DNA of 64,000 bases from Cordylochernes scorpioides (lineage: Eukaryota; Arthropoda; Arachnida; Pseudoscorpiones; Chernetidae), in assembly GCA_030710605.1 (NCBI GenBank), contig CP092865.1:26600947-26664946 (forward strand), in the 5' to 3' direction. The notes under the pieces were generated by a model. It was not told where the DNA came from and did not search any database. It saw only the letters and a list, made by a program, of their open reading frames with translations. The position numbers and the translations under genes were made by a program. This document shows, in pieces, positions 1,350 through 61,045 of this stretch (positions within the stretch are counted from its first letter, which is position 1; each line of letters begins with the position of its first letter).

Positions 1350-1508
1350 TATATGCCATCTATCGATAAAATATTAACTATTAAATTTATTCGAAATTTG
1401 TTTCTTTTCAATAATATCATCTAATTTTATCTCTACAGACAATGATATAAGTTATTAAATGAGAGGACTCGGCTCATCAGTGGTGAAGCATCTCAGCGGT
1501 TTCACCAA
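1350..1508 (-). repeat. Family Z fragment with hammerhead segments
   Basis: On the minus strand 1458-1507 reads GAAACCGCT, then TTCACCA, CTGATGA and GCCGA, matching the last two segments of the family Z ribozyme-like region. The outer part has TGCCATCTATCGATAAAAT and CTCTACAGAC, shared with the repeats at 9.7 and 29.5 kb. The first ribozyme segment is absent. Confidence 0.6.
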
Positions 1509-4084: not shown

Positions 4085-6526
4085 CGTAATATGTATCTGA
4101 GCAGAGAAAGTAAATTTAACAACATTTGAATGTTAGATGATTGACAGTTTAACCTGGTACAATATGTATCTGAAAAGAGAAAGGAAATTTAACAACATTT
4201 GAATGTTAGATGATTGACAGTTTAACCTGGTACAATATGTATCTGAGCAGAGAAAGGAAATTTAACAACATTTGAATGTTAGATGATTGACAGTTTAACC
4301 TGGTACAATATGTATCTGAGCAGAGAAAGGAAATTTAACAACATTTGAATGTTAGATGATTGACAGTTTAACCTGGTACAATATGTATCTGAGCAGAGAA
4401 AGGAAATTTAACAACATTTGAATGTTAGATGATTGACAGTTTAACCTGGTACAATATGTATCTGAGCAGAGAAAGTAAATTTAACAACATTTGAATGTTA
4501 GATGATTGACAGTTTAACCTGGTACAATATGTATCTGAGCAGAGAAAGGAAATTTAACAACATTTGAATGTTAGATGATTGACAGTTTAACCTGGTACAA
4601 TATGTATCTGAGCAGAGAAAGTAAATTTAACAACATTTGAATGTTAGATGATTGATAGTTTAACCTTGTACAATATGTATCTGAGCAGAGAAAGTAAATT
4701 TAACAACATTTGAATGTTAGATGATTGACAGTTTAACCTGGTACACTATGTATCTGAGCAGAGAAAGGAAATTTAACAACATTTGAATGTTAGATGATTG
4801 ACAGTTTAACCTGGTACACTATGTATCTGAGCAGAGAAAGGAAATTTAACAACATTTGAATGTTAGATGATTGACAGTTTAACCTGGTACACTATGTATC
4901 TGAGCAGAGAAAGGAAATTTAACAACATTTGAATGTTAGATGATTGACAGTTTAACCTGGTACACTATGTATCTGAGCAGAGAAAGGAAATTTAACAACA
5001 TTTGAATGTTAGATGATTGACAGTTTAACCTGGTACAATATGTATCTGAGCAGAGAAAGGAAATTTAACAACATTTGAATGTTAGATGATTGACAGTTTA
5101 ACCTGGTACAATATGTATCTGAGCAGAGAAAGGAAATTTAACAACATTTGAATGTTAGATGATTGACAGTTTAACCTGGTACAATATGTATCTGAGCAGA
5201 GAAAGGAAATTTAACAACATGTGAATGTTAGTTGATTGACAGTTTAACATGGTACAATATGTATCTGAGCAGAGAAAGGAAATTTAACAACATGTGAATG
5301 TTAGTTGATTGACAGTTTAACCTGGTACAATATGTATCTGAGCAGAGAAAGGAAATTTAACAACATTTGAATGTTAGATGATTGACAGTTTAACCTGGTA
5401 CACTATGTATCTGAGCAGAGAAAGGAAATTTAACAACATTTGAATGTTAGATGATTGACAGTTTAACCTGGTACACTATGTATCTGAGCAGAGAAAGGAA
5501 ATTTAACAACATTTGAATGTTAGATGATTGACAGTTTAACCTGGTACACTATGTATCTGAGCAGAGAAAGGAAATTTAACAACATTTGAATGTTAGATGA
5601 TTGACAGTTTAACCTGGTACAATATGTATCTGAGCAGAGAAAGGAAATTTAACAACATTTGAATGTTAGATGATTGACAGTTTAACCTGGTACACTATGT
5701 ATCTGAGCAGAGAAAGGAAATTTAACAACATTTGAATGTTAGATGATTGACAGTTTAACCTGGTACAATATGTATCTGAGCAGAGAAAGGAAATTTAACA
5801 ACATGTGAATGTTAGTTGATTGACAGTTTAACCTGGTACAATATGTATCTGAGCAGAGAAAGGAAATTTAACAACATGTGAATGTTAGTTGATTGACAGT
5901 TTAACCTGGTACAATATGTATCTGAGCAGAGAAAGGAAATTTAACAACATTTGAATGTTAGATCATTGACAGTTTAACCTGGTACAATATGTATCTGAGC
6001 AGAGAAAGGAAATTTAACAACATTTGAATGTTAGATGATTGACAGTTTAACCTGGTACACTATGTATCTGAGCAGAGAAAGGAAATTTAACAACATTTGA
6101 ATGTTAGATGATTGACAGTTTAACCTGGTACACTATGTATCTGAGCAGAGAAAGGGAAATTTAACAACATTTGAATGTTAGATGATTGACAGTTTAACCT
6201 GGTACAATATGTATCTGAGCAGAGAAAGGAAATTTAACAACATTTGAATGTTAGATGATTGACAGTTTAACCTGGTACAATATGTATCTGAGCAGAGAAA
6301 GTAAATTTAACAACATTTGAATGTTAGATGATTGACAGTTTAACCTGGTACAATATGTATCTGAGCAGAGAAAGTAAATTTAACAACATTTGAATGTTAG
6401 ATGATTGACAGTTTAACCTTGTACAATATGTATCTGAGCAGAGAAAGGAAATTTAACAACATTTGAATGTTAGATGATTGACAGTTTAACCTGGTACAAT
6501 ATGTATCTGAGCAGAGAAAGGGAAAT
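4085..6526. repeat. 73-bp minisatellite, about 33 units
   Basis: Units recur every 73 bp (GAGCAGAGAAAGG at 4099 and GAAAAGAGAAAGG at 4172). The unit includes ATTTAACAACATTTGAATG, GATGATTGACAGTTTAACC and TGGTACAATATGTATCT. Variant classes (ACAATATG or ACACTATG; CATTTGAA or CATGTGAA; AAAGTAAA or AAAGGAAA) run in blocks, showing local duplication of several units at once. The array ends abruptly near 6526, just beyond a candidate exon. Confidence 0.97.
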
Positions 6527-6588
6527 TTTCCAAAGACTCCCCGTTCTATGAAGAAATAAAAGAGCGTATAAACGTTTCTTATTTACCA

Positions 6589-9666: not shown

Positions 9667-9848
9667 ACAATGTCTTTCTTTTTCGCATATAAAATATTAT
9701 CTCTACAGATCTTACTTTGTATGTGCAAAATAAAAGTTATTAAATGAGAGGGCTTGGCTCATCAGTGGGGATTCCTCCCATTCAATAACTTTTTCAGTAA
9801 AGTCTGTAGAGATAATATTTGACATGTGAAAAATAAATACATTGCCAA
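9667..9848. repeat. Foldback repeat related to family Z
   Basis: The left arm 9667-9751 and right arm 9772-9848 are inverted copies containing ATTATCTCTACAGA and AATAACTTTT. On the minus strand the centre still reads CACTGATGA GCCAAGCCC, the third segment of the family Z ribozyme region. Just beyond the right arm comes CGATAGATGGCAATTG, the AGATGGC motif seen at the ends of other families. Confidence 0.7.
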
Positions 9849-10187
9849 AAATAATTACTACAAATTTTAACGATAGATGGCAATTGAATTTTAAATATAA
9901 TAGATTTATATTTCAAATTTTTGCATTGTTTAATCCCAATATAGCTGCTGTTCCTGGTGTTTCAATTACAAGAAAGCCTTTGCATATTGGACTGGTTTTA
10001 AAGAGCAAATTTGCTTTTTTATATATTGGCCTGAGAGCTAGGTAGGAAATGAAGAAGAGAGCCAATGGTTCATCGCTACCATGCAGTAAGAGGTCAGGCG
10101 ACGTGTCAAGCTGTCACACCGCTCCACTTGTAGAGCACGACAGGGATTAGGACGCTAATTACTCGCTTCACAAGCCAAGCTTGGGGA

Positions 10188-13100
10188 TTCCCTCTGGACT
10201 GTATACCTACACGGCTGGACCCCCCTCTGGACTGTATACCTACACGACTGGACCTCCCCTCTGGACTGTATACCTACACGACTGGACCCCCCTCTGGACT
10301 GTATACCTACACGGCTGGACCCCCCTCTGGACTGTATACCTACACGACTGGACCCCCCTCTGGACTGTATACCTACACGACTGGACCTCCCTCTTGACTG
10401 TATACCTACACGACTGGACCTCCCCTCTGGACTGTATACCTACACGACTGGACCCCCCTCTTGACTGTATACCTACACGACTGGACCCCCCTCTGGACTG
10501 TATACCTACACGACTGGACCTCCCTCTTGACTGTATACCTACACGACTGGACCTCCCTCTTGACTGTATACCTACACGACTGGACCTCCCCTCTGGACTG
10601 TATACCTACACGACTGGACCCCCCTCTTGACTGTATACCTACACGACTGGACCTCCCTCTTGACTGTATACCTACACGACTGGACCTCCCCTCTGGACTG
10701 TATACCTACACGACTGGACCCCCCTCTTGACTGTATACCTACACGACTGGACCTCCCTCTTGACTGTATACCTACACGACTGGACCTCCCCTCTGGACTG
10801 TATACCTACACGACTGGACCTCCCCTCTGGACTGTATACCTACACGACTGGACCTCCCTCTTAACTGTATACCTACACGACTGGACCTCCCCTCTGGACT
10901 GTATACCTACACGACTGGACCTCCCCTCTGGACTGTATACCTACACGACTGGACCTCCCTCTTAACTGTATACCTACACGACTGGACCTCCCCTCTGGAC
11001 TGTATACCTACACGACTGGACCTCCCCTCTGGACTGTATACCTACACGACTGGACTTCCCTCTTAACTGTATACCTACACGACTGGACCTCCCTCTTAAC
11101 TGTATACCTACACGACTGGACCTCCCCTCTGGACTGTATACCTACACGACTGGACCCCCCTCTGGACTGTATACCTACACGACTGGACCCCCCTCTGGAC
11201 TGTATACCTACACGACTGGACCCCCCCCTCTGGACTGTATACCTACACGACTGGACCCCCCTCTGGACTGTATACCTACACGACTGGACCCCCCTCTGGA
11301 CTGTATACCTACACGACTGGACCCCCCTCTGGACTGTATACCTACACGACTGGACCCCCCTCTGGACTGTATACCTACACGACTGGACCCCCCTCTGGAC
11401 TGTATACCTACACGACTGGACCTCCCCTCTGGACTGTATACCTACACGACTGGACCCCCTCTGGACTGTATACCTACACGACTGGACCCCCCTCTGGACT
11501 GTATACCTACACGACTGGACCTCCCTCTTAACTGTATACCTACACGACTGGACCTCCCCTCTGGACTGTATACCTACACGACTGGACCTCCCCTCTGGAC
11601 TGTATACCTACACGACTGGACCCCCCTCTGGACTGTATACCTACACGACTGGACCTCCCCTCTGGACTGTATACCTACACGACTGGACCCCCCTCTGGAC
11701 TGTATACCTACACGACTGGACCCCCCTCTGGACTGTATACCTACACGACTGGACCTCCCCTCTGGACTGTATACCTACACGACTGGACTCTCTGGACGTG
11801 TATACCTACACGACTGGACCCCCCTCTGGACTGTATACCTACACGACTGGACCCCCCTCTGGACTGTATACCTACACGGCTGGACCCCCCTCTGGACTGT
11901 ATACCTACACGACTGGACCTCCCTCTTAACTGTATACCTACACGACTGGACCCCCCTCTGGACTGTATACCTACACGACTGGACCTCCCCTCTGGACTGT
12001 ATACCTACACGACTGGACCCCCCTCTTGACTGTATACCTACACGACTGGACCCCCCTCTGGACTGTATACCTACACGGCTGGACCCCCCTCTGGACTGTA
12101 TACCTACACGACTGGACCTCCCTCTTAACTGTATACCTTACACGGCTGGACCCCCCTCTGGACTGTATACCTACACGACTGGACCCCCCTCTGGACTGTA
12201 TACCTACACGACTGGACCCCCCTCTGGACTGTATACCTACACGACTGGACCTCCCCTCTGGACTGTATACCTACACGACTGGACCTCCCTCTGGACTGTA
12301 TACCTACACGACTGGACCCCCCTCTGGACTGTATACCTACACGACTGGACCCCCCTCTGGACTGTATACCTACACGACTGGACCCCCCTCTGGACTGTAT
12401 ACCTACACGACTGGACCTCCCCTCTTGACTGTATACCTACACGACTGGACCTCCCTCTTGACTGTATACCTACACGACTGGACCCCCCTCTGGACTGTAT
12501 ACCTACACGACTGGACCTCCCCTCTGGACTGTATACCTACACGACTGGACCCCCCTCTGGACTGTATACCTACACGACTGGACCTCCCCTCTTGACTGTA
12601 TACCTACACGACTGGACCTCCCTCTTGACTGTATACCTACACGACTGGACCCCCCTCTGGACTGTATACCTACACGACTGGACCCCCCTCTGGACTGTAT
12701 ACCTACACGACTGGACCCCCCTCTGGACTGTATACCTACACGACTGGACCCCCCTCTGGACTGTATACCTACACGACTGGACCCCCCTCTGGACTGTATA
12801 CCTACACGACTGGACCCCCCTCTGGACTGTATACCTACACGACTGGACCCCCCTCTGGACTGTATACCTACACGGCTGGACCTCCCCTCTGGACTGTATA
12901 CCTACACGACTGGACCCCCCTCTGGACTGTATACCTACACGACTGGACCCCCCTCTGGACTGTATACCTACACGACTGGACCCCCCTCTGGACTGTATAC
13001 CTACACGACTGGACCCCCCTCTGGACTGTATACCTACACGACTGGACCTCCCTCTTGACTGTATACCTACACGACTGGACCCCCCTCTGGACTGTATACC

Positions 13101-15088
13101 TACACGACTGGACCTCCCTCTTGACTGTATACCTACACGACTGGACCCCCCTCTGGACTGTATACCTACACGACTGGACCTCCCCTCTGGACTGTATACC
13201 TACACGACTGGACCCCCCTCTTAACTGTATACCTACACGACTGGACCCCCCTCTGGACTGTATACCTACACGACTGGACCCCCCTCTGGACTGTATACCT
13301 ACACGACTGGACCTCCCTCTTAACTGTATACCTACACGACTGGACCTCCCTCTTGACTGTATACCTACACGACTGGACCCCCCTCTGGACTGTATACCTA
13401 CACGACTGGACCCCCCCCTCTGGACTGTATACCTACACGACTGGACCTCCCTCTTAACTGTATACCTACACGACTGGACCCCCCCCTCTGGACTGTATAC
13501 CTACACGACTGGACCCCCCTCTGGACTGTATACCTACACGACTGGACCTCCCCTCTGGACTGTATACCTACACGACTGGACCCCCCTCTGGACTGTATAC
13601 CTACACGACTGGACCCCCCTCTGGACTGTATACCTACACGACTGGACCTCCCTCTTAACTGTATACCTACACGACTGGACCCCCCTCTGGACTGTATACC
13701 TACACGACTGGACCCCCCTCTGGACTGTATACCTACACGACTGGACCCCCCTCTGGACTGTATACCTACACGACTGGACCCCCCTCTTGACTGTATACCT
13801 ACACGACTGGACCCCCCTCTGGACTGTATACCTACACGACTGGACCTCCCTCTTAACTGTATACCTACACGACTGGACCCCCCTCTGGACTGTATACCTA
13901 CACGACTGGACCCCCCTCTGGACTGTATACCTACACGACTGGACCCCCCCTCTGGACTGTATACCTACACGACTGGACCCCCCTCTGGACTGTATACCTA
14001 CACGACTGGACCCCCCTCTTGACTGTATACCTACACGACTGGACCCCCCTCTGGACTGTATACCTACACGACTGGACCTCCCTCTTAACTGTATACCTAC
14101 ACGACTGGACCCCCCTCTGGACTGTATACCTACACGACTGGACCCCCCTCTGGACTGTATACCTACACGACTGGACCCCCCTCTGGACTGTATACCTACA
14201 CGACTGGACCCCCCTCTTGACTGTATACCTACACGACTGGACCCCCCTCTGGACTGTATACCTACACGACTGGACCTCCCTCTTAACTGTATACCTACAC
14301 GACTGGACCTCCCCTCTGGACTGTATACCTACACGACTGGACCCCCCTCTGGACTGTATACCTACACGACTGGACCCCCCTCTGGACTGTATACCTACAC
14401 GACTGGACCCCCCTCTGGACTGTATACCTACACGACTGGACCCCCCTCTGGACTGTATACCTACACGACTGGACCCCCCTCTTGACTGTATACCTACACG
14501 ACTGGACCCCCCTCTTGACTGTATACCTACACGACTGGACCCCCCTCTGGACTGTATACCTACACGACTGGACCCCCCTCTGGACTGTATACCTACACGA
14601 CTGGACCTCCCCTCTGGACTGTATACCTACACGACTGGACCCCCCTCTGGACTGTATACCTACACGACTGGACCCCCCTCTGGACTGTATACCTACACGA
14701 CTGGACCTCCCCTCTGGACTGTATACCTACACGACTGGACCCCCCTCTGGACTGTATACCTACACGACTGGACCTCCCCTCTGGACTGTATACCTACACG
14801 ACTGGACCTCCCCTCTGGACTGTATACCTACACGACTGGACCCCCCTCTGGACTGTATACCTACACGACTGGACCCCCCTCTGGACTGTATACCTACACG
14901 ACTGGAACTCCCTCTTGACTGTATACCTACACGACTGGACCCCCCTCTGGACTGTATACCTACACGACTGGACCCCCCTCTGGACTGTATACCTACACGA
15001 CTGGACCCCCCTCTGGACTGTATACCTACACGACTGGACTCTCTGGACGTGTATACCTACACGACTGGACCCCCCTGGATGTATACTA
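10188..15088. repeat. 33-bp minisatellite, about 150 units
   Basis: The unit combines GACTGTATACCTACACGACTG with a C-rich stretch (CCCCCTCTG, CCTCCCCTCTG or CCTCCCTCTT). Most units are 33 bp; CCTCCCCTCT units are 34 bp and CCCCCCCTCT units longer. Because 33 is a multiple of three and no plus frame contains a stop, the array reads open for hundreds of codons (such as TPLWTVYLHDW repeats), with 34-bp units shifting the frame. No flanking start context, splice signal or domain suggests translation. The last two units carry a CTCTCTGGACGTG variant also seen at 11789, evidence of internal exchange. Confidence 0.97.
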
Positions 15089-16134: not shown

Positions 16135-17879
16135 CTGTATATGAAGACCATCATTTTGAAGTGAAGCCAAATATAGAAAACCATTATCTTAAAATAAAGC
16201 CATATATGAAGAACATAATCCTGGAGTGAAGACATATGAAGACCATCTTCATGAAGTGAAGTTATATATGAAGACCGTCATCATGAAGTGAAGTCATATA
16301 TGAAGACCATCTTCATGAAGTGAAGCCATATATGAAGACCATCTTCATGAAGTGAAGCCATATATGAAGACCATCTTCATGAATTGAAGCCATATATGAA
16401 GACCATCTTCATGAAGTGAGGCCATATATGAAGACCGTCTTCATGAAGTGAAGCCATATATGAAGACCATCTTCATGAAGTGAAGCCATATATGAAGACC
16501 ATCTTCATGAAGTGAGGCCATATATAAAGACCATCGTCATGAAGTGAAGCCATATATGAAGACCATCTTAATGAAGTGAAGCCATATATGAAGACCATCT
16601 TCATGAAGTGAAGCCATATATGAAGACCATCTTCATGAAGTGAAGCCATATATGAAGAACATAATTCTGAAGTGAAGACATATAAAGACCATCTTCATGA
16701 AGTGAAGCCATATATGAAGACCATCTTAATCAAGTGAAGCCATATATGAAGACCATCTTAATCAAGTGAAGCCATATATGAAGACCATCTTCATGAAGTG
16801 AAACCATATATGAAGTCCATCTTCATGAAGTGAAACCATATATGAAGACCATATTCATGAAGTGAAGGCATATAAAGACCATCTTCATGAAGTGAAGCCA
16901 TATATGAAGACCATCTTAATCAAGTGAAGCCATATATGAAGACCATCTTAATCAAGTGAAGCCATATATGAAGACCATCTTAATCAAGTGAAGCCATATA
17001 TGAAGACCATCTTCATGAAGTGAAACCATATATGAAGTCCATCTTCATGAAGTGAAGCCATATATGAAGACCATCTTAATGAAGTGAAGCCATATATGAA
17101 GACCATCTACATTAAGTGAAGCCATATATGAAGACCATATTCATGAAGTGAAGGCACATAAAGACCATCTTCATGAAGTGAAGCCATATATGAAGACCAT
17201 CTTAATCAAGTGAAGCCATATATGAAGACCATCTTCATGAAGTGAAACCATATATGAAGTCCATCTTCATGAAGTGAAACCATATATGAAGACCATCTTC
17301 ATGAAGTGAAACCATATATGAAGACCATATTCATGAAGTGAAACTATATATGAAGACCATCTTAATGAAGTGAAACTATATATGAAGACCATCTTCATGA
17401 AGTGAAACCATATATGAAGACCATATTCATGAAGTGAAGGCATATAAAGACCATCTTCATGAAGTGAAGCCATATATGAAGACCATCTTCATGAAGTGAA
17501 ACCATATATGATGACCATCTTCATGAAGTGAAACCATATATGAAGACCATCTTCATGAAGTGAAACCATATATGAAGACCATCTTCATGAAGTGAAACCA
17601 TATATGAAGACCATCTTCATGAAGTGAAGCTATATATGAAGACCATCTTCATGAAGTGAAACTATATATAAAGACCATCTTCATGAAGTGAAATCATATA
17701 TAAAGACCATCTTCATGAAGTGAAACCATATATAAAGACCATCTTCATGAAGTGAAACTATATATAAAGACCATCTTCATGAAGTGAAACCATATATGAA
17801 TACCATCTTCATGAAGTGAACCTATATATAAAGACCATCTTCATGAAGTGAAACCATATATGAAGACCATCTTCATGAA
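16135..17879. repeat. 32-bp minisatellite, left block
   Basis: The unit is GAAGTGAAGCCATATATGAA followed by GACCATCTTCAT, about 53 copies. Shortened units (GGCATATAAAGACC) recur at about 16675, 16865, 17153 and 17425, showing a loose higher-order pattern. The array is interrupted by a retrotransposon at 17880 and resumes in phase at 19313. Edge units are the most diverged. Confidence 0.97.
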
Positions 17880-19770: not shown

Positions 19771-20528
19771 AATATTTAAACCGACTCGACACCATAAAAA
19801 ATATGTAAATATAGTGATGATTCAATTCATTAAGCCACATCAATTCCTGGCACGTACAAATGTCGTCAATTATGGGAGGAAATGTGAAGTAAACAAGATC
19901 AAATCTTCAGAACATTAAACACGAGTTTCTACATCAGATGTTGTTACATCCTTCCAGGTAACAATCGGAAATTCTACTGAGGATTATAGTCTGGCATTTA
20001 CTTATTGCAGAATCTGCATCATGCATCTCAGGCAAGACACCGGTTTGTTCAGGCTTTCTCCATGTAGATGACCCAATGTAAAATCCTAAATTGACATTAT
20101 AAACTGACATAATTGAAACTATTTTGGAGATCGAGAGAGCAAACCCTATTAATATTTCTAAATATGCTCTAAGCATATACTCGTATATTGGATTTGGATT
20201 AAAATTTACTTCCCCACATTTTTCGAAGGGCAACTTATCTCTTTTTATCCATTTTGTATGTGTGATTTAAACTAAATCACGTAAACACATGTGAGGTTCT
20301 CTCTCTCTATATATATAAAAGAACAAGCAGTATAATGATGTTAGTTTCTTACTTTTTTATAAGGGCGGGTAGCTAACCTGCTCACGTGATTTAGTTGAAA
20401 TCCCAAACAACCTCGATAAAAAAAGAGACTAATTGGCCTTCGAAATACTAGAATTCTTAGAGTATATTTATAAATCATCGGAACTATTTTGTGCGACTCT
20501 TTTTTCTTCTTTCAATTGAAACAATTTC
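19771..20528. other. Nothing recognised
   Basis: AT-rich sequence without supported genes or clear repeats. Confidence 0.5.
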
Positions 20529-20630
20529 CTACTGTTTTTACTGCGATGAAAGATGGTGGGAGTATCTGACTGGTGAATCCTCACAGTGGCTTCGTTAGTT
20601 TAACCAAACCAGTTCAAATCTTATAAAACA
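20529..20630 (-). repeat. Degenerate family Z fragment
   Basis: On the minus strand it has TTAAACTAACGAAGCC, then GAGGATTCACCAGTC, and TTTCATCGCAGTAAA, the order seen in better family Z copies. The ribozyme core is too damaged to form. Confidence 0.45.
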
Positions 20631-20756
20631 GATGATCCGCTAATCCATTCTATATAATTAATACCTAACCTACTTATATGTGAAATGTTTGAGAAAGAGC
20701 ATTGCTTCATGCATGTAAAAGTACATATTTGTATAAATTCTTATTGTCCCCTCACA

Positions 20757-20910
20757 TAAAGCTAATCTTTTAAATACATTTGCCAAAATATTTCCTCAAC
20801 AGTGCCGCCGGATATCTGAACAACACAGACCCATGCAATATTTGAGTGGTCTGGTAGATGAACTGTCGACACCGCTAGCAGGTTTGATGAGCCTGATCCT
20901 TCCCAATAAA
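20757..20910 (+). repeat. Family Z copy, variant 5' half
   Basis: It shares a long stretch with 25309-25480 (AAAGCTAATC, AACAGTGCCGCCGGATATC, CCCATGCAATATTTGAG). The ribozyme-like region has AGTGGTC TGGTAGA and ACCGCT, but the third segment is reduced to TTTGATGAGCCTG, losing the helix I strand. Confidence 0.65.
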
Positions 20911-22057
20911 AAAATCGCTTTAAGAACAGTAAGAAGATGTTTTTGTTTGTGAAAAGATTTACGCCAAATAGTTCCATGCATAATATACCGATGGCACATC
21001 CACGATATGTCAAACAAACACCACAGGTTTCTGGAGATGAGTTTCCTTTTTGTATTGCAATATGTAATTAACACATAACACAACGAGAAACTGCTAGAGT
21101 GGAGAATATTTATGTTTTAAATAGTTTCCCTCCCTCTATATTTCATGGTAGGTTTTACCATCTCTATCCCATTATCATACCAATTGCATATTGTCATTAC
21201 AGATCTTATATAGCGTGAAGGCCTATCAAACAATTAATGACAATTCTCAAAGTACGAAATGTTCTTGAATATTTCAAATAACATTTTTTAGTTGAAAATG
21301 TGCCTATATAAAGTTTAAAATAAATCTATTAATAGTATTGATGTTTTCAAACGCTCCTCTTGTGTTTATTGTTATTCATTTTTTTAATGATAAGGTTTTT
21401 TGAATTACATTTTGGGTTATTTTTATATAATCTCATATTGTAACCTGTATGTTGTTTATATGAAGCTAGTTCTGAACCTGGAACATTACCCCATACTAGA
21501 TGTTTTCAGTGAATCTACACACAAACGAAATGAGAGAATGAAACATTTAAAATGCAGGAATCTCCCAGTGAGAGAACACACTAAGCTTGTAGATGCGTCA
21601 TGTTGGGTGTGAGTTAAAGAACAATAGGACACATGTGGCAGTCAAATGCACAAGTTGGCCAAGGACATGGGGAAAGTAATTTCACCTTGTTTGGGAAACA
21701 AAGTAGCCTTAATTCGCGGGAAACTGTGGGAGAGATGGAAATATATTGAGCCTTCAAGCATAAATGCCATTTTTCATTTAAAAAAATCAATGAGTAACAT
21801 AATTAAATAGAAATGCGAAATTTTGATGGAAGTTTCAGCAAAATAATTGTTATCATTCAAACAAAGTTGATGGATAATTAGGAATTATGCCCAGGATCAA
21901 GGGAATAGAGATTGGCCTTTTGATAGGTTATAATCATATCTATATAAAAACACAGCTGTGTCTCATTGAGAGACTAGCTTCAATAAAGGGGTTCTAATAT
22001 ATTTCCCATCATAAATTAGATTTATATAAAATACATTATGTTTACATCAAATTGTTT
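20911..22057. other. AT-rich DNA, nothing recognised
   Basis: No supported gene, tandem repeat or transposon end was seen. Confidence 0.5.
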
Positions 22058-22069
22058 CTATAATACGCT

Positions 22070-22335
22070 ACAATAATTTCTGAGATCCCATCCTTCAGTG
22101 CTGCGTATATAAACAGAATCGTCCAATACAGTATTAGAGCTCTGAGAAGCGGTCTGGTGGATTAAATTAGCGAAACCGCTGGGATGGTTCACCACTGATG
22201 AGCCAAGCCCTCCCAATATACATATTTTTTTCATCGCAGTAAGGGCAGTAGAAGTTTGTATTATGTATAAAAGAAACATTCGTGCTTTTAAATCCTTTCG
22301 TTTTATATGTATAGATGGCGCGTTATTGCTTTGTG
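22070..22335 (+). mobile_element. Family Z repeat, best-preserved copy
   Basis: The order is: GAGATCCCATCCTTCAGTG, TATATAAACAGAATCGTCCA, the ribozyme-like region (22148-22215), CATCGCAGTAAGGGCAG, TAAAAGAAACATTCGTG, ending at ATAGATGGCGCGTTATTGC. The same order occurs at 35.7, 46.3 and, in part, 48.2 kb. There is no open frame of note, so it is a non-autonomous repeat. A Penelope-like or retrozyme origin is inferred from the ribozyme parts. Confidence 0.75.
22148..22215 (+). ncRNA. Rewired hammerhead-like ribozyme region, family Z
   Basis: Three segments occur in order. First, AGCGGT C TGGTGGA (22148-22161). Second, TTAGC GAA ACCGCT (22167-22180). Third, TTCACCA CTGATGA GCCAA (22188-22206). 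AGCGGT pairs with ACCGCT as helix III, TGGTGGA with TTCACCA as helix I, and GCCAA with TTAGC as helix II (one A-C mismatch). Every helix abuts the hammerhead core exactly: GUC cleavage triplet, CUGAUGA, GAA and the A15.1-U16.1 pair. The segment order makes the helices interleave (1-4, 2-5, 3-6), so a single RNA could form it only as a pseudoknot. GGGATGG and CCCTCCC around the third segment would make it a hairpin loop, giving two kissing hairpins. The fold and any activity are inference. Confidence 0.55.
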
Positions 22336-22477
22336 TTAAAGTCTTCCATAATTAATCTACTAATATCATGGTTTAACCAAGTCATTACGGGTTTCTTCAA
22401 GACTTGGCATGACATGACAGAATCTCTGATTAGAGACCACCTCCAGAATAGACCAGGTATAGCCTTGAATTGAGGCA

Positions 22478-25308: not shown

Positions 25309-25480
25309 GGCCTCCTTACATAAAGCTAATCTATTAAATACATTTTCCAAAATATCTCCTCAACAGTGCCGCCGGATATCTGAGCAACACAGACCCATGC
25401 AATATTTGAGCGGTCTGGTAGATGAACTGCCGACCGCTAGGAGGGTTCACCATTGATGAGCCAGAACCCTCTCAATGTGC
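25309..25480 (+). repeat. Family Z copy, variant 5' half
   Basis: It pairs with 20757-20910 in its 5' part. The ribozyme-like region (25409-25473) has AGCGGTC TGGTAGA, TGCC GACCGCT and TTCACCA TTGATGA GCCAG, with flanking GAGGG and CCCTC. The core is damaged (C3 to U; GAAA reduced to GA). GCCAG instead of GCCAA is shared with the 47.6 kb copy. Confidence 0.65.
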
Positions 25481-25810
25481 CATTTTGTCAAATTTAAGAA
25501 AATAAGTAGTGTGTAAAACTATGCTGATACAAATTTGCACAGTTTATAATTTATATAGAAATAAATTATGATGTTTTTGTATTTTTTATAATGAGAGAGA
25601 TGTGGACATTGCTCTTTTCTGGTTTGTAAAATATGACAAGAGAGTAACCTGGAATATAGGTGTTATAGAATATGGCGCTACATAGAAAGCATTCAATAAG
25701 GGAGGATCATCATAGATCTATTTGAATATATAAATCCATATTCACATAGATCCAAGATGCCCCTTTTTATTGAAAGTATATCTATAAATCACGATATGTT
25801 TAGAAAAAAA

Positions 25811-28872: not shown

Positions 28873-29487
28873 ACCAACATATCAAATGATATGTTCAAAA
28901 TTGATTTAGAAAAATCAAATTAACTTTTTTAAGCCGTATTTTGAAATTATATCAGGTCTTAGGGATAGATAAGGTCTTATTTTCTTATAGCTATAATCTA
29001 TAATCCAAATTGTGCTATATCAACAACCTAAGATGCTTTTAAAGACATTTCGTATCGTTATGTAGAATCGTCCTCCTGTGTGTGTGAGAGTCCAAAGGGG
29101 AAAACAAGCAAATAATGGGGCCCCTTGTCAATGCGTAAATAGGTAATTAGCAACAATACAGCTTGGTGGCATTGGCTGGATTCTTGTTAGCTTCATCGAC
29201 ATTCAGATCTTTTTCTGCTGAACTGTGAAGCTAATTGTGTACAAGGCGACAAGGTTCTAGGTCTCCAATGGGAAAAAAACTGTAAATATTTGACTCTCTC
29301 TTATTAAGTTGCTAAGTCTATGAAATATTATATTAGAAATTATGAAGTAAAAAAGGTAAGATGATGTAAGCTTTATATCATGTACCTTTATAAAATTTGG
29401 TAAATGTCATATTTGTAAGTTGGTAATATAATTGATATATATAAAGGAATATTAGTAAATTAAATTTTATTGCCCTCTATCGTTAAA

Positions 29488-29643
29488 ATTTTACACAAAT
29501 AAATTTACTGGCAATGCGTTTCTTTTTTTTTATTTAAATCTCTACAGACCTTACTGCAATGAGGAGACCTCATTGCAGTAAGGTCTGTAGAGATTTAAAT
29601 AAAAAAAAGAAACGCATTGCCAGTAAATTTATTTGTGTAAAAT
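29488..29643. repeat. Near-perfect 156-bp palindrome
   Basis: Arms of 77 and 76 bp (29488-29564 and 29568-29643) are identical except for one T/A in a homopolymer, with a three-base centre (AGA). The arms contain AATTTACTGGCAATGCGTTT, CTCTACAGACC and TTACTGCAATGAGG, related to family Z arms. CCCTCTATCGTTAAAAT lies just outside. Such a short-loop palindrome extrudes easily and is normally lost or eroded, so it must be young. Confidence 0.95.
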
Positions 29644-32800: not shown

Positions 32801-34678
32801 CAGGAGGATACTGTGATGTATAAAAGGAAAGGTTTAAACCACTCCCGTGTCAAAACGACGCTAGAACTGTGCGCCATGTCTGGCTTTGTCCCCACCGACC
32901 TGAATCTGTCGGATCAGAGAATGACGCCATTATGACTTTTTTTCCCTACGTTTCATTTTTAGGTTATCGATGACCGAGTTAAGTGATAGCCCTCACTATC
33001 AGAGCTCCAAAGTGGCAGTTTTCTCTCTCATTTGCATAGAACTTCTTTCCTTGAAAGTGAGACGGACTATGTTTTTCTTATCTTGTTCTACAAATAAAAT
33101 TGAGATCTTGGAAATATTGTAACTTTCCTTCTTTGTAGCTATATTTGTGTCATAGTCTCGTGGGTCTTCATATTTAATATATATTTTTTAATAACAAATG
33201 TAAAGTTCGACACTATAACACAAGTAAAGCTGCAAAAAAAGGGAAGTTCCAATAAATTTCCAAGTTTGATAAAATAGTTAGGTTTTATCTAGAGTGTCCT
33301 TACTTCACGAGTCTTCTATTCCAGATGAGATTCAGCTGATGTACTCAGTGGCTTCGCCAAAATTCACATTTTTGTTTTATTTGTGTGTGGTGTGGGCGTC
33401 GGTTTTATATTACCGTCTTTAATCTTTTCATTTCAGGATGTTGGTTTTGATATTGTATTACATTCAATTTATTTATCGATGAATTATTCATTTTTCTTTA
33501 GATACAACGATTACGATATTGTTAAGGCTTTGGAAAAAAATAACTGTTGTTTAATTTGTGAATAAACATACGAGAAAGGATAAGCCTTCACCATATAACC
33601 TCACAATACATTCATCACTGATTATACATGATGTTCTTACAATACTCACATTAACCTACTCAGTAATTGTAAAAATTTGTCTTTTAAATAATTCAAATAA
33701 AAATTTATTCCAATCTTTAATGTGGCATTTATACTACGCATTCAATCGAGTGTAAAGAATCAAAAGGTTAACCACAAAACCTACATCAATTTCCAATACC
33801 TCTCATCAAAGAGCTATTCGTACCTTACAATAAGTCAATTAGTAAAACTTCCAGAAAAAGAAGGACTCCTATTAAGAATAAAACCAGCTGATTCACTGGA
33901 ATTTAAATTGGAATTCCATCTGTTTGGAATTGGAAGGGTCATCAGAAATTTTCGCTACATCTTCTAAATGTCAATTGAAAAAAAAAATTCCAATTAATAT
34001 AGATATATTTTACATCTTGTTAGTCTTGATAATTTTTTTTAACCTTTTCCACTTTCTCGTATTAAAAGACAAATTAGTTAACACGTATTCATTTGAATTG
34101 GAAAATAGTTTCGTTAATTATTTTGGTTAATTTGAAATTTCAAAAAGAAATCGAAAGAGTTTCATTAAATAAATTTGAGATTGTGAATGGAATGAAGATG
34201 TTTTGCGCTTATACACAAAAGAATAAATTCTCTATTTATGACCTTTGTTTGAATAAATAAGAAAATACAGAATTTATTCACAAGCATTCTCTAAATACCT
34301 TTTATATAGAAATAAACACCATATATAACATAGAACAGCTTTTTTATCTTTGTATATTAACAATTAATTTTTATTTTCGTTGCCTATTCATATATCAAAT
34401 ACTATATATTTTTACTTTCTTTTCAAATAATATACATATATTATATGTGTGTGCATCATTAAAAATATATATTCTTTATTTTCTAATTCATGCATAATTA
34501 TAAATTTTGACCATAATTATAAAAAGACGCTATCTAATTTTGCTGTAAATATGCGTATTTAATTTACATATTTTATAAATCACTAAAAAGGATTAATTTA
34601 ATATATCTTATATAACTGTGAAATATTGTATTGTCAATCTACCTCAAATAATATACTCAAGTAATTGAAAATAAACTA
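32801..34678. other. AT-rich DNA, nothing recognised
   Basis: No supported exon, repeat or RNA gene. Open frames near 33.4-34.1 kb lack recognisable domains. Confidence 0.45.
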
Positions 34679-35532
34679 CTTGATAATGAATAATCTTTTT
34701 TTAAATCAAACGACTGCCCTATTGCGAATGCGCTATTACGAAAATTCATAATTTATATATATGTATAATCATCCCATTATATATAGATAGAGTTGGAATT
34801 ATAAAAGATTTCAAGGAACACACCACCACACCAAAAAATAAATATTTGATTTAAATAAACGTGTGCCGATTGGATAGATGGCAAGCCTGAGTGGCATATA
34901 TTTAAAGATTAGAACCAATCAAGTAGCGGGAATAGACGTTAGATCCAATCAAGTGAGAGGAATTCTGCAGAGTATTCCCCAGTGATGGGTCCAGAAGACC
35001 AATCAGAAGCCAGAGGTAATGGCCACCCAATGGTACCAACATCCCTAGGGTACACTCACAGGCTACAATTTTCTTCTTTTGGAACAGGACCGTGCTTGTT
35101 CATCTACACTATGTCTTACGACTACTAGGGTAGTCAACTTTGCTTATGTAAATAGTTTTGTGAAAAAAAGACAAGTATGTAAATTTGTTTTTTTTTTTTT
35201 CGCCCAATGACTACATGTCTTGGATTGTATAAATTAACCGTGTTGTTCAATAAAAAGATTTAGGATGAGTGATAGTCTTCCTTTATTACATTATAGCATC
35301 TTCCTTGGAGTCACCGAGCTGAAGGTGGCTGGACTATCCAATCGGCACACGTTTATTTAAATCAAATATTTATTTTTTGGTGTGGTGGTGTGTTCCTTGA
35401 AATCTTTTATAATTCCAACTCTATCTATATATAATGGGATGATTATACATATATATAAATTATGAATTTTCGTAATAGCGCATTCGCAATAGGGCAGTCG
35501 TTTGATTTAAAAATAGATTATTTATTATCAAG
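34679..35532. mobile_element. 854-bp foldback element, about 199-bp arms
   Basis: The arms 34679-34877 and 35334-35532 are inverted copies with few differences, including GAATGCGCTATTACGAAAAT and CACCACACCAAAAAATAAAT. The 456-bp interior is less AT-rich. It has a TATAAAT box (near 35227), AATAAA (near 35250) and CCAATCA motifs, resembling an LTR or promoter segment rather than a transposase gene. The class is unknown. Confidence 0.85.
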
Positions 35533-35639
35533 TTTGTTTTTATGTTTAAAAGAAACATTCGTGTATAAATGCTTCCATTTCTTATATATAGATGTCATGT
35601 TGTCACCTTATAATTAATTATGACTATAGCCATATGTAC

Positions 35640-35965
35640 TTATTGTTTGCGGAAGAGCATTGCTCGATGCAAATATCTATATATAATTCTACTGTCCTAA
35701 AAGCTTATGTCCAAAGTTTTCTTGAATATCATTTCTAAGATTCCACCCTTCATTGCAGCATATATAAGCAGAATCGTCCAATACAGTAAAAGAGCTATAA
35801 GAAGCGATCTGGTGGATTAAATTGGCGAAACCGCTTGGAGGTTTCACCATTGATAAGCCAAGCCCTCCCAATATATTTGATTCATCGCAGTAAGAACAGT
35901 AGAAGTTTGTTTTATATTTAAAAGAAACATTCGTGTTTGAATGCTTTAAATTTCTTATATGTATA
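35640..35965 (+). mobile_element. Family Z repeat
   Basis: It begins GTTTGCGGAAGAGCATTGCTC and continues through AAAGCTTATGTCC, AAGATTCCACCCTTCATTGC and the ribozyme-like region (35813-35870) to CATCGCAGTAAGAACAG and AAAGAAACATTCGTG. Helices I and II are perfect and III has one mismatch, but the core reads TTGATAA instead of CTGATGA, so this copy should be inactive. It lies just outside the 854-bp foldback. Confidence 0.75.
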
Positions 35966-36574
35966 TATGTTACTTTTAGAATCCTTTACACAGTCCGGTA
36001 CATCATCTAAATAGGAACTCGTACAGGAATATCATTTATTGCATGACTCTTTTAAAATCATTTATACTAATTCTTTATCTGAGTCTGAACTTGCACAAGA
36101 ATTCCATTTAAAGTAGCACTAAGCTGTTTTTAGAATCAGCTATTTCTTTTTCCTAATAATCAACGAATTTATACATAAAATAGCATTTTATTTATGTGTA
36201 TAAAGATATCATCATTTACTTCGAATAAACAATTTTCAATATATATTAATTTTGCGAAAATAAAAGATTAATCAAAACACGACCTTTTGTAAGTTCGGAA
36301 AAGTCAACCTTCATACCATGCTATGGTCCTCATCAATGCAGCCATGAGTTTAGTAATATCACGAAGGTTGAATCTCACAAGCTGACAAAGTTATCTATTT
36401 ATATAATGGTTTATTTGAATTTTGTGTACGTATTCTCCTTTGACCGCTATCAAGTCATAGGTATCGCATAGAGCGCTATCTAAATATATAACTCTGCGAA
36501 AATAATACAAAAATAAAATGATAAATAATACAAAACGAGATAAATTAAGAAAAAAGGAATATATTTATTGTGAA

Positions 36575-36915
36575 ACTAATAGTTGTTGGCTTGCACACAC
36601 TATCTGTGGTAATAAATATCAAATAATCGTTGTTTTTTCAAATTCCAGAATTAGTCAAATACCCTTTCTTTATCAGTAAAGAAAATCTAACTACACCAGA
36701 ATTTTCAGAATGCCCCCAAAGATCAGCTATTTTAGTCGTAGACTTACAGCTGCATACACCACGCTGATGAGGCCCAACAGCCCGACTTTATTAATTAAAA
36801 TTGGCTATTGGCCACAATTATGGAATAATTAAAATTAAATATTAGTTGATATTTATTCCGACAGATGGTGCAAGCCATCATAAAATTTTAGTTGCATGAT
36901 CAGGAGATGCCTTTT
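36575..36915 (+). mobile_element. Family X foldback with half hammerhead
   Basis: The left arm (GTTGGCTTGCACACACTATC, minus orientation) and the right arm (GATATTTATTCCGACAGATG) are inverted copies. Between them CACCACG CTGATGA GGCC CAACA GCCCGA (36757-36785) is the 5' part of the family X hammerhead. The 3' part (GAAA, cleavage triplet and helix I strand) is deleted. Confidence 0.7.
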
Positions 36916-37019
36916 TTCTTTATATATATAAATTTCTCTATTAAGAAACATAACTATTCTAAAATATCTTTAGAATTTGTATTTTAAAATTGCAGATCGC
37001 AAGAAGATAATATAAATGA

Positions 37020-38381: not shown

Positions 38382-38530
38382 TATTGGTTCATCAAACCCT
38401 CTCTCGGCGGTTTCTCCAAATAAATCTCCAAGACACCTCTTCATCAACCATTCAATAATCTTCAGTGAGAGGGTTCGACACTGATGAGCCAAGCCCTCTC
38501 ATCTAAATTTATTATCATATGGCACTAAGG
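38382..38530. repeat. Foldback family Z fragment
   Basis: The left part (minus strand GAAACCGCCGAGAGAGGG) and the right part (plus strand GAGAGGG TTCGACACTGATGAGCC AAGCCCTCTC) face each other. The hairpin stem here is GAGAGGG with CCCTCTC, against GGGAGGG with CCCTCCC elsewhere, a compensatory change. Confidence 0.6.
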
Positions 38531-38701
38531 TAGATAGAAGTGTTTTTTGATGATTTATTCGAAAAGACATTGATGTCATAAATGATCAAAATTCATTCGA
38601 TAGATGGCATTTTAAATATTCAATTTGCTGTTTATAAAGGTGATTTATTTACGAAGTAAAATCACTGTTATTTACACATTTAGACATTGTTACACACCTT
38701 A

Positions 38702-45299: not shown

Positions 45300-45530
45300 A
45301 CCTCTTTGGCAAATTATGGGAATTTCATGAGACTCATTCGGATCACATGAAATCAAAATCCGTCCTGGACTGATTGACCATTTATCTATAGGAAGGCGTT
45401 CGGTATTTTCCAAGGCTGTTGTTGTGGAGTTGTCAACGACCCGATTCTTCCAGTTTGCGGAATTGGTCAATAGATGGCGTATATTTTTGCGTCTATTTTG
45501 ACGGGAGAGGTGACCTTTCTTTTTATAGAT
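45300..45530 (+). repeat. Family Y copy, hammerhead decayed
   Basis: GATCACATGAAATCAAAATC, CGTCCTGGACTGATTGACC, GGAAGGCGTTCGG, GGAGTTGTCAACGACCCG, GTCAATAGATGGCGTA and TTTTGACGGGAGAGG follow family Y order. The core reads CTGATTGA and helix II and GAAA are lost. Confidence 0.65.
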
Positions 45531-45539
45531 CAACATCTT

Positions 45540-46225
45540 TCCTGTATATTTTGATCAATACTTTGGTTGAATTATTTGTAGTTTTTTTAATGCAAAAAAA
45601 AAATTACCAATTTCTGAAAAACAAACTTTCAATTTTAATCGGAGATATACATGTAGATGAGAACTCAGAGATTTGTATTTAAAATATATTAACAAAGAAA
45701 TCCGAAATAGTTTACTTAAAACTAAATGAAATTGTATTCACCAAATCAAAATATCGAGAAAGAGATTTGATATAACACGTAATTAAAATGAAGCATGTAA
45801 TTGCTTTCTAAAATTTCAATTTATAGAAACAAAAATACCAAGTTTTCTAAGAGAATTAACAATATAAAGGAAATATAAAATTTCTAAACCCAATTAACAA
45901 AAAAAAAACTGTGTAAATTGAAGATGAAATTTTTGTCACAGAAAATTTTGAAATTTGATCTAATTTAAATTAATTAATTAGTTTCTACTCTTTAATTCTG
46001 TAAATTGAATCGAGTTATTTTAACAAAAAAAAATCGATTGAAAAAAAAAATCTGTTTCAATCATTAATTTGTTTAAAATAGTATGCAAATATAATAGATA
46101 CACTTTCTCTCTATTAATTGACTAGCACACTGGTCAAAAACATTTTTTATTTATTTATCTGTTGCCGGCATAGTAACAGCTGTTCTAGGTTTTGTGGGTG
46201 TGTTGATTTTAAATATGCAAACCCT
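45540..46225. other. AT-rich DNA, nothing recognised
   Basis: No supported feature. Confidence 0.45.
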
Positions 46226-46229
46226 ATCT

Positions 46230-46450
46230 CTCTAGAATGATTCAATACAGTATTAGAGGTCTAAAGAAGCGGACTGGTAGATTAAATTGGCGAAACCGCT
46301 GGAAGGGTTTACAACTGATGAGCCAAGCCTTCTCAATATTTTTTTCATCGCTGTAAGGTTAGTAGAAGTTTGTTTTATTAGTGAAAATGAATATTCGCGT
46401 CTTAATGTCTTCATTCGTTATAAATAGATGGCAGGTTATTGCTTTGTATT
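46230..46450 (+). mobile_element. Family Z repeat
   Basis: The ribozyme-like region at 46268-46335 reads AGCGGAC TGGTAGA, TTGGC GAA ACCGCT and TTTACAA CTGATGA GCCAA. In helix I a G-C pair has become A-U by changes on both strands (TGGTGGA to TGGTAGA; TTCACCA to TTTACAA), although a second change there gives a G-A mismatch. The triplet GAC in place of GUC should abolish cleavage. It ends ATAGATGGCAGGTTATTGC. Confidence 0.75.
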
Positions 46451-46850: not shown

Positions 46851-47495
46851 TTGATGGGCTACTAACCAATGTGTATGATTTTTGAACCCAAAAATGAATA
46901 TATCAAGCAGACAAACCGCAATGCACTGTTACAAAGTACCAAGGTGCTGCAAGTCACCAAGGTTGTTTCAAAAAGGTTAGATTCCCCAGGCCAGGGAAGA
47001 TCAAAGAAAGACAGGTGTTGTTTAGATAATAAGATTCGATAAAGCGTGAATGATTCAGAAACTGATGGGAAAAGATAGATTTTATTTTTGTAAAAATAAA
47101 TATATAAAAAGTTTTAGATTAAAAAAAAATTTAATTAAAAAAAACTTTGGTAATATATATATAATTTTTGAAAATTGGGATCTTATATCAAGGATTACTA
47201 GTGAGGGTACCAGTAACAAACTTCGAGATGACACAGCAATTTATTTAAGGCAAGAACAAACTATGAATGCTAAACAAAAGATAAGCAATGAGGGAAGTTT
47301 ACAGTAGCAAAATATAAACATCAAAAATGATACTCTGTATATAAAATAATAAATACTTCGCTACAATATTGGATGGAAATATTTCTCTAAAATATTTATT
47401 AAGGAAATAACCAATCATTTTAGAAGGCTTATTGATGCTAGGTAGAGTATGTAAATCTATTATATTATGATGCATTAGCGCGCCATCTGTTATCA

Positions 47496-47760
47496 AAATA
47501 CGAAACTATTATAGACGTTATAGACGCGTATGATTCTTTTAAAAATAAAACAATTTCTACTGCCTTTACTGCAATGGAAAAATTAATGGGAGGTCCTGGC
47601 TCATCAGTGGTGAACCCTCTGGTTTAAACTGGCGAAATCGCTGGGAGGGTTCACCACTGATGAGCCAGGCCCTCCCATTAATTTTTCCATTGCAGTAAGG
47701 TCAGTAGAAATTGTTTTATTTTTAAAAGAATCATACGCGTCTATAATAGTTTCGTATTTT
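47496..47760. mobile_element. Foldback family Z element
   Basis: The arms 47496-47618 and 47646-47760 are nearly identical inverted copies. Both carry the third ribozyme segment with its hairpin (GGGAGGG TTCACCA CTGATGA GCCAG GCCCTCCC in the right arm). The centre holds CTGGC GAA ATCGCT (47629-47642). CTGGC pairs with GCCAG, a compensatory version of TTGGC with GCCAA. AACAGATGGCGCGCTAATGC-type sequence lies outside the left arm. Confidence 0.85.
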
Positions 47761-47968
47761 TATATGTAAATCTCTAATGAGAGCTGATAGAGCAAAACGG
47801 ACATTTCTGGATTCTGCACATTAAAATCAGGAAGAAATAAGTCTAAAATACCCGGCAACAAATATGTACGGGCCAGTGTAATCCTAAACTCTGGTATATG
47901 AAACTAGTATTGATATATGTAAATATTGTTAATAGGTAAACAGCTTCTTTAACTATTCCTTTCATTAT

Positions 47969-48154
47969 TTATACAAAGCAATAACGCGTCATCTATAGAT
48001 AAGAAATTGAATCATTTAAGCGTGAAGGTTTCTTTTATACAGAGTATAAATTACATCGCAGTAAGGACAGTAGAAATTTATTCCGTGTATAAAAGAAACA
48101 TTCGCGCTTAAATGATTCAATTTCAATAGATGACGCGTAATTGCTTTGTATTAA
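47969..48154. mobile_element. Foldback of family Z 3' ends
   Basis: The arms 47969-48042 and 48084-48154 are inverted copies with ACAAAGCAATAACGCGTC, TTGAATCATTTAAGCG and TTTCTTTTATAC. The centre retains ACATCGCAGTAAGGACAG. Confidence 0.8.
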
Positions 48155-48159
48155 TTTAT

Positions 48160-48360
48160 GCCCATCTAGCTTGTCCTTATTGTTTGCGGAAGAGAATTGC
48201 TCAATGCAAATATTTATATGTAATTTTACTGTTCTAAAAAGCTTATGTCCATAGTTCGCTTGAATGCCATTTCTGAGATTCCACCCTTCAGTGTAGCATA
48301 TATAAGCAGAATTGTTCAATACAGTATTAGAACTCTAAGAAACGGTCTGGTTGATTTTTT
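48160..48360 (+). repeat. Family Z 5' portion with first segment
   Basis: GTTTGCGGAAGAGAATTGCTC, AAAGCTTATGTCC, GAGATTCCACCCTTCAGTG and AACGGTC TGGTTGA (48341-48354) give the 5' region and first ribozyme segment. The copy then stops. Confidence 0.65.
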
Positions 48361-60869: not shown

Positions 60870-61045
60870 AATATGGTAACTGGCGAAACCGCTGGGAAGG
60901 TTCACCACTGATGAGCAAGGCCCTCCCATAAATTTTTCCATTGCAGTAAGGACAGTAGAAATTATTTATCTTTAAAAAGAATCATACGCGTATATAATAG
61001 TTTCGAATTTTGATAACAGATGGCACGCTAATGCATCATGGTAAA
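60870..61045 (+). repeat. Family Z copy lacking its 5' half
   Basis: CTGGC GAA ACCGCT (60880-60893), then TTCACCA CTGATGA GCAAG (60901-60918), GGCCCTCCCAT and TTGCAGTAAGGACAG, ending AACAGATGGCACGCTAATGC. It shares the CTGGC subtype with the 47.6 kb foldback; helix II has one mismatch. The first segment is absent. Confidence 0.7.

What the first reader, a model, noticed from the sequence alone, without database searches (positions are those of the whole stretch)
22148..22215. Hammerhead ribozyme parts in an interleaved order (family Z)
Seen: the segments AGCGGT-C-TGGTGGA, TTAGC-GAA-ACCGCT and TTCACCA-CTGATGA-GCCAA contain every hammerhead core base. The three complementary strands (6, 7 and 5 bp; one mismatch here) lie exactly against the core. 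Known: natural hammerheads are nested types I, II or III. Here the order III'-GUC-I', II'-GAA-III, I-CUGAUGA-II makes all three helices cross, so a single RNA would need a pseudoknot. The third segment sits in its own GGGAGGG/CCCTCCC hairpin loop, so two kissing hairpins would build the catalytic core. Exact abutment of three stems on the core is hard to explain by chance. Inference: a rewired hammerhead, possibly one that cleaves only under certain folding or pairing conditions. No copy in this window is flawless; this one has an intact core and one A-C mismatch in helix II.
Basis: partly seen in the sequence, partly recalled or inferred. Interest (0 to 1): 0.9.

Follow-up and report, generated by a model that had tools for sequence, protein, structure and literature searches.

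The report
Rewired hammerhead ribozyme in mobile DNA
The stretch is a decayed copy of a small self-cutting RNA (a hammerhead ribozyme) whose three pieces come in an unusual crossed order; that order was published in 2023 from environmental RNA, and here it sits in a dispersed, retrozyme-like mobile element of a eukaryotic, probably animal, genome.

Summary
At 22148-22214 every hammerhead core base is present, in the order site block, GAAA block, CUGAUGA block, so the three stems cross. The order is known: Eckert et al. 2023 (PMC10085705) named it type SGC, predicted 583 examples and showed cleavage in vitro. They describe the same fourth helix tying the outer sides of stems I and II, and report no type SGC in genomes of known organisms.

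The window holds 28 related stretches. The family consensus is flawless; 5 of 842,407 random CTGATGA sites matched its stem lengths, none as cleanly. The module is more alike than the downstream flank in 99 of 117 comparable copy pairs. Covariation is modest: one stem II pair is U-A in 4 and C-G in 6 of 10 copies, perhaps one event. Two loci show a head-to-tail unit, period 373 bp, the size of animal retrozymes, which carry type I hammerheads.

Best reading: a degenerate retrozyme-like family whose ribozyme is type SGC. No aligned copy is intact in core and all stems; cleavage is untested. The topology is known; its home in chromosomal mobile DNA appears new within the papers searched.

The parts
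22148..22161 (+). Block S: III' AGCGGT, cleavage-site C17 (predicted cut after 22154), I' TGGTGGA
22162..22166 (+). Linker TTAAA joining the outer ends of I' and II' (5 nt; published type SGC typically 3 nt)
22167..22180 (+). Block G: II' TTAGC (one A-C mismatch), GAA, III ACCGCT
22181..22187 (+). 5' strand of helix IV (GGGATGG here, GGGAGGG in the consensus), corresponding to the published helix that ties stems I and II
   Evidence: comparison with the text
22188..22206 (+). Block C: I TTCACCA, CTGATGA core, II GCCAA
22208..22214 (+). 3' strand of helix IV, CCCTCCC
22076..22337 (+). Extent of this family copy as found by the last profile; no preceding unit was found beside it
35530..35976 (+). 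Tandem copy: tail of one unit followed by a nearly whole unit (35530-35593 repeats as 35903-35966, period 373 bp); module at 35803-35869 with full stem II but one mismatch in stem III, two in helix IV and a damaged CTGATGA
48051..48356 (+). Second locus with the same head-to-tail unit junction (48086-48298 against 35543-35760, 78%); homology ends just after block S
46223..46450 (+). Copy with all three blocks; site triplet GAC instead of GUC; in stem I one G-C to A-U exchange and one G-A mismatch
25344..25488 (+). Copy of a divergent subfamily with all three blocks (GUC kept, GAAA and CTGATGA damaged, one mismatch each in stems I and II)
20783..21000 (+). Second copy of the divergent subfamily; stem I strand of block C deleted
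20465..20652 (-). Decayed copy on the minus strand, CTGATGA deleted
60878..61042 (+). Copy keeping blocks G and C only (C-G form of stem II, one mismatch)
47620..47769 (+). Copy keeping blocks G and C, perfect stem II and helix IV; head to head with a minus-strand copy 47465-47620
1351..1508 (-). Copy keeping blocks G and C; stem II held with two wobbles, helix IV with one G-C to A-U exchange and two mismatches
38466..38614 (+). Copy keeping block C and a fully paired helix IV with one G-C to A-U exchange

Best explanation
The stretch is a degenerate genomic copy of a type-SGC (non-circularly permuted) hammerhead ribozyme. Hairpin III carries I' and II' in its loop, hairpin IV carries I-CUGAUGA-II in its loop, and the two loops kiss through stems I and II, which builds the ordinary hammerhead core and cuts after C22154. 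The ribozyme belongs to a small AT-rich retroelement with a 373-bp period that inserted as truncated or head-to-tail copies. By analogy with animal retrozymes, its function in source elements was to cut multimeric transcripts into unit-length RNAs that could be circularised and reverse-transcribed by another element's enzyme. Shown here: blocks, order, family, tandem unit, conservation. Shown elsewhere for type SGC: cleavage, and in one RNA the need for all four helices. Inferred: activity of ancestral copies, circular RNA stage, mobilising enzyme.
For: Every core base and all stems at the stated place. Published type SGC has the same block order, a short I'-II' linker and a helix joining the outer sides of stems I and II, with cleavage and rescue mutants. 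Family consensus unlikely by chance. Module more alike than downstream flank: 99 of 117 comparable pairs among all 28 stretches, pooled identity 0.760 against 0.666; 52 of 55 among 12 better copies. Outer stem II pair is U-A in 4 and C-G in 6 of 10 aligned copies (one base moved by hand); helix IV pair 45-77 is A-U in 2 of 14 rows with letters. Head-to-tail unit in two loci with the same junction; period 373 bp, within the 150-450 bp tandem repeats described for animal type I hammerheads. Consensus minimum-energy fold forms both hairpins.
Against: No aligned copy is intact in core and all stems; only 1 of 6 copies with all three blocks keeps every core base. Covariation beats shuffles only moderately: changed pairs reached by 44 of 500, changed cells by 9, covariation score by 34, percentage paired by 20, further pair types by 269 of 500; the slide of -3 gives as many changed pairs. 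The stem II switch may be one event: the tree is poorly supported, and in the alignment used there two of the six C-G rows read C-A because the G falls in an insert column. Stem III shows no two-sided change, stem I one. Of four copies folded singly, two (22148, 25409) form two hairpins, 46268 only the first in most of its length, 35803 neither; in 22148 a competing GGUUCA/UGAGCC pairing covers part of the core. The unit's low GC (33.8%) is no sign by itself, the window has 35.3%. No RNA data. Rfam gives no hammerhead there, which a model of nested order need not find.
Confidence: 0.75

Rival explanations
1. Chance resemblance: two ordinary hairpins in the untranslated end of a mobile element that happen to contain hammerhead-like words and short complementary loops.
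For: Motif chosen after the fact; imperfect in every aligned copy; hairpins III and IV are the nested fold of the consensus anyway; covariation modest.
Against: Exact abutment of three stems on the core in the family consensus: 5 of 842,407 random sites, none with fewer than three G-U; the module is better conserved than the downstream flank; the independently published motif has the same order plus the fourth helix.
Confidence: 0.08
2. A conserved non-catalytic double hairpin (for example a reverse-transcriptase recognition or terminal structure) descended from a type-SGC ribozyme but no longer needing cleavage, as in mobile elements whose hammerhead is dispensable.
For: Many copies keep block C but lack block S (9 of 15 rows); in a lizard Penelope-like element hammerhead cleavage was not needed for insertion in vitro, and no RNA reads began or ended at its cut site.
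Against: Loss of block S in those copies fits simple 5' truncation; the consensus keeps GUC and GAAA, which a pure binding hairpin would not need (inference).
Confidence: 0.15
3. The family is the terminal repeat (pseudo-LTR) of a Penelope-like element rather than a non-autonomous retrozyme.
For: Penelope-like elements come in tandem or partial tandem and carry hammerheads; copies here are tandem and 5'-truncated.
Against: Weak: the unit-to-unit junction is direct at two loci, but only 4 window ORFs were scanned for protein families, so a Penelope protein nearby is not excluded.
Confidence: 0.25

Closest known systems
Type-SGC hammerhead ribozyme (HRIMA-1 motif and variants), Eckert et al. 2023, PMC10085705 (text parts 1-6 of 8 read; supplement not readable)
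   Same: Block order S-G-C, all core bases in the consensus, three crossing stems, short I'-II' linker, a helix binding the outer sides of stems I and II
   Different: Published examples are from environmental sequence (the paper says its motifs are almost all exclusive to metatranscriptomes and found in no genome of a known organism, bar one candidate of another order); linker typically 3 nt against 5 here; only 3 of 583 published sequences deviate in the core, those here are decayed; sequences could not be compared
Animal non-LTR retrozymes, Cervera and de la Pena 2020, PMC7229834 (passages seen)
   Same: Small unit (373 bp against 150-450 bp), head-to-tail copies, one hammerhead per unit
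   Different: Known animal retrozymes carry type I hammerheads; here type SGC; no circular RNA shown; only two head-to-tail loci seen
Penelope-like elements with hammerheads (PMC11167929, passages seen; Cervera and de la Pena 2014 not held, known from citation)
   Same: Tandem or partial-tandem arrangement, hammerhead in the element
   Different: Minimal type I ribozyme as described; reverse transcriptase/GIY-YIG ORF, for which the surroundings were not searched here

Membership tests
Type-SGC hammerhead ribozyme | Blocks in the order S, G, C on one strand | tested here: met
Type-SGC hammerhead ribozyme | CUGAnGA, GAAA and an NUH site all present | tested here: met
   Met in the 22148 copy and the consensus; only 1 of 6 copies with all blocks keeps all
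Type-SGC hammerhead ribozyme | Stems I, II and III abutting the core | tested here: met
   Consensus complete with one G-U; 22148 has one mismatch in stem II
Type-SGC hammerhead ribozyme | Helix joining the outer sides of stems I and II | tested here: met
   GGGAGGG/CCCTCCC, 80.0% of cells paired, 3 of 7 pairs with two-sided changes
Type-SGC hammerhead ribozyme | Covariation in the stems | tested here: inconclusive
   Pairing far above slid controls, covariation only moderately above shuffles; number of independent events unresolved
Type-SGC hammerhead ribozyme | Self-cleavage after C17 | not testable with these tools
   needs RNA
Animal non-LTR retrozyme | Unit of about 150-450 bp, low GC, in tandem | tested here: met
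   Period 373 bp, 33.8% GC (window 35.3%), two head-to-tail loci
Animal non-LTR retrozyme | Type I hammerhead | tested here: not met
   The unit carries a type-SGC arrangement; hence 'works like', not filed as a member
Animal non-LTR retrozyme | Circular RNA of unit length | not testable with these tools
   no RNA data
Penelope-like element | Reverse transcriptase with GIY-YIG endonuclease | not tested
   Only 4 window ORFs scanned with Pfam; own genome not held
Nested hammerhead types I, II, III | Cyclic order with nested stems | tested here: not met
   Order is S-G-C; no Rfam hammerhead match in 22050-22345

The most novel reading that the evidence does not exclude
A whole family of chromosomal mobile elements in a eukaryote, probably an animal, replicates through RNA cut by a non-circularly permuted, kissing-hairpin hammerhead. 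This would be the first genomic and first retroelement home for type SGC, and would suggest that the metatranscriptomic type-SGC RNAs include, or share ancestry with, retrozyme-like RNAs.
Probability: 0.55. Interest if true: 0.75.

Novelty: new variant of a known kind. Interest (0 to 1): 0.62.

Why it matters
By the paper that described them, type-SGC ribozymes come from environmental RNA and from no genome of a known organism. A DNA-borne family with many copies would give them a host and a biological role, and old and young copies in which to study how a crossed order arises from, or beside, the nested ones. The same window also holds a type I hammerhead and a twister match, so permuted and nested ribozymes could be compared in one genome.

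Tried and rejected
Nested reading with the same CTGATGA: Rfam found no hammerhead in 22050-22345 even at E up to 10, only two weak C/D-box snoRNA matches on the other strand.

Copies elsewhere: three exact patterns in viral contigs, 0 matches; one pattern in genome contigs gave 4 matches in 4 bacterial records, where my own arithmetic expects about 2 by chance for 19 bases, and they were not read; phage records, none. No scan of metagenome contigs was allowed. Papers: 'type-SGC' occurs in 1 held paper; other searches gave listings of 3, 2 and 3 papers, of which passages of two were seen with no type SGC in them. The 22 papers on hammerheads and Penelope-like elements (20 listed) and the 17 on Schistosoma (15 listed) were seen as listings, with PMC10085705 read and passages of PMC7229834 and PMC11167929. 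Most subscription papers are not held, so absence from print is not established.

First idea of a schistosome host: not supported by anything found; dropped.

Coding end: an upstream frame ending in a stop inside the linker was read by eye; no tool tested it.

Rows dropped: of 28 stretches found at E up to 0.01, 15 went into alignment A2. The 13 left out lack block C or hold only part of it; one of them, 38434 minus, has the same kind of deletion as the kept 20845 row and could have been kept (its outer stem II pair reads U-A by eye). The conservation count used 12 rows I had picked; one search repeats it on all 28 (99 of 117 comparable of 378 pairs), on the 15 aligned rows (73 of 77 comparable of 105) and on 16 rows (85 of 90 comparable of 120). 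The alignment tool misplaces one base of the 25409 row; the hand-corrected table is, the uncorrected count.

Protein folding, promoter scans and covariance models were not used.

Full report
What is there. Stem III is 6 of 6, stem I 7 of 7 with one G-U, stem II 4 of 5. The hairpin that encloses the third strand is GGGATGG/CCCTCCC in this copy, with one mismatch; GGGAGGG is the family form.

A family. Iterated profile search finds 28 related stretches in the window at E up to 0.01; some are two parts of one copy. Fifteen keep the CUGAUGA block well enough to align. Six of these 15 keep all three blocks in part or whole; the other 9 are cut off upstream. CTGATGA is exact in 10 of 15 rows, GAAA in 7 of the 10 rows that hold the G block, and the site is NUH in 4 of the 6 rows that hold the S block (my count from the rows). 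Only the 22148 copy keeps all three core parts, and it has mismatches in stem II and helix IV, so no aligned copy is flawless. The majority sequence is flawless.

More than chance. With a first-order model of the window and CTGATGA implanted, 5 of 842,407 sequences had stems of at least 7, 5 and 6 pairs in any of six block orders; each of the 5 had at least three G-U pairs against one in the consensus, and none was in the present order. A looser summed score equal to that of the consensus or higher came up in 21 of 753,401. The window has 32 CTGANGA sites. The consensus was chosen after the fact; the null does not include helix IV, which would make the match rarer still. Against this, a contiguous-stem scan of the window at summed score 13 or more returns no Z copy, only a type I hammerhead.

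Selection. Among all 28 stretches, 117 of 378 pairs have enough letters in both module and downstream flank; the module is more alike in 99, pooled identity 0.760 against 0.666. In 12 better copies it is 52 of 55 comparable pairs, 0.819 against 0.683 downstream and 0.691 upstream. Pairing over the named structure is 83.2% of 220 cells against 39.0-54.5% with slid partners; two-sided changes occur at 5 pairs and 9 cells, reached by 44 and 9 of 500 shuffles; the covariation score is reached by 34, the percentage paired by 20 and the number of further pair types by 269; one slide also gives 5 pairs. After moving one misaligned base, the outer pair of stem II is U-A in 4 and C-G in 6 of 10 copies. 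The tree made without those two columns is poorly supported and does not show how often it switched; the profile alignment used for it puts the G of two C-G rows in an insert column, where they read C-A. I call this supportive, not decisive.

What it is. Eckert and co-workers (PMC10085705, text parts 1-6 of 8 read; supplement not readable) divide hammerheads into blocks S, G and C and report the order S-G-C in 583 predicted RNAs. Five tested RNAs expected to work cleaved, by fragment sizes at the predicted site; in one of them, disrupting stems I, II, III or the helix between stems I and II abolished cleavage, and compensating changes restored it. The order, the short linker between I' and II' and the fourth helix are the same here. 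They state that no RNAs were found in genomes of known organisms apart from one candidate of another order, and that nearly all their motifs are exclusive to metatranscriptomes.

Where it sits. At 35530-35976 the tail of one unit is followed head to tail by a nearly whole unit, period 373 bp; the same junction is found at 48051-48356, where 48086-48298 matches 35543-35760 at 78%. The unit has 33.8% GC, close to the 35.3% of the window. Animal type I hammerheads are described in tandem, low-GC units of 150-450 bp, expressed as circular RNAs and perhaps mobilised by Penelope-like elements (PMC7229834, passages). Penelope-like elements also stand in tandem and carry hammerheads, and in one of them cleavage was not needed for insertion in vitro (PMC11167929, passages). 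Copies here begin at various depths, and several tails stand head to head. I therefore infer a retrozyme-like element, mobilised by another element's enzyme. This is analogy, not proof. An ORF with Ig domains, a Tc-type transposase and a reverse transcriptase fit a eukaryote; 'probably an animal' is my inference.

How it would work. The consensus folds into hairpin III and hairpin IV. The loop of III holds I' and II'; the loop of IV holds I-CUGAUGA-II. Pairing of the loops, worth about -7.4 and -5.2 kcal/mol as free duplexes, would place GUC, GAAA and CUGAUGA in the usual junction, with the cut after C22154. Of four copies folded singly, 22148 and 25409 form two hairpins, 46268 mainly the first, 35803 neither; in 22148 the second hairpin extends over part of the core, which would compete.

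Verdict. The finding is real and is best filed as a decayed genomic type-SGC hammerhead. The topology is known; the mobile-element setting in a chromosome appears new within what could be searched. On checking, facts were mended but none required a change of the odds.

Noticed in passing
54492-54558 (-): Type I hammerhead resembling Rfam Hammerhead_HH9 (26.5 bits, gathering 52) with intact-looking core; 54411-54608 repeats at 60260-60452 (81%) and the region matches 45307-45540 on the other strand (63%).
   Followed up: partly
52967-53013 (+): Type-P1 twister ribozyme match, 32.5 bits (gathering 67.2), E 1.1e-5 in 181 bases. With the two hammerhead forms, three ribozyme kinds may lie in 64 kb.
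   Followed up: partly
47465-47769; 47967-48155; 51482-51673; 9675-9885; 29471-29614: Tails of the family stand head to head as palindromes with the join at the truncated ends. Two of them lie under sub-threshold miRNA-precursor matches in Rfam, 47584-47680 and 29521-29611.
   Followed up: partly
244-1310; 4088-6528; 10190-15076; 16138-17879; 56124-56952: Large tandem arrays with units of 77, 73, 33, 32 and 118 bases.
   Followed up: no
34678-34877 and 35334-35533: Inverted repeat arms of 200 bases, 99% complementary, ending where the tandem copy at 35530 begins.
   Followed up: no
36764-36771 (+): CTGATGAG followed by a short GGC..GCC stem, hammerhead-like by eye; no Rfam match at E up to 1 in 36700-36960.
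   Followed up: partly
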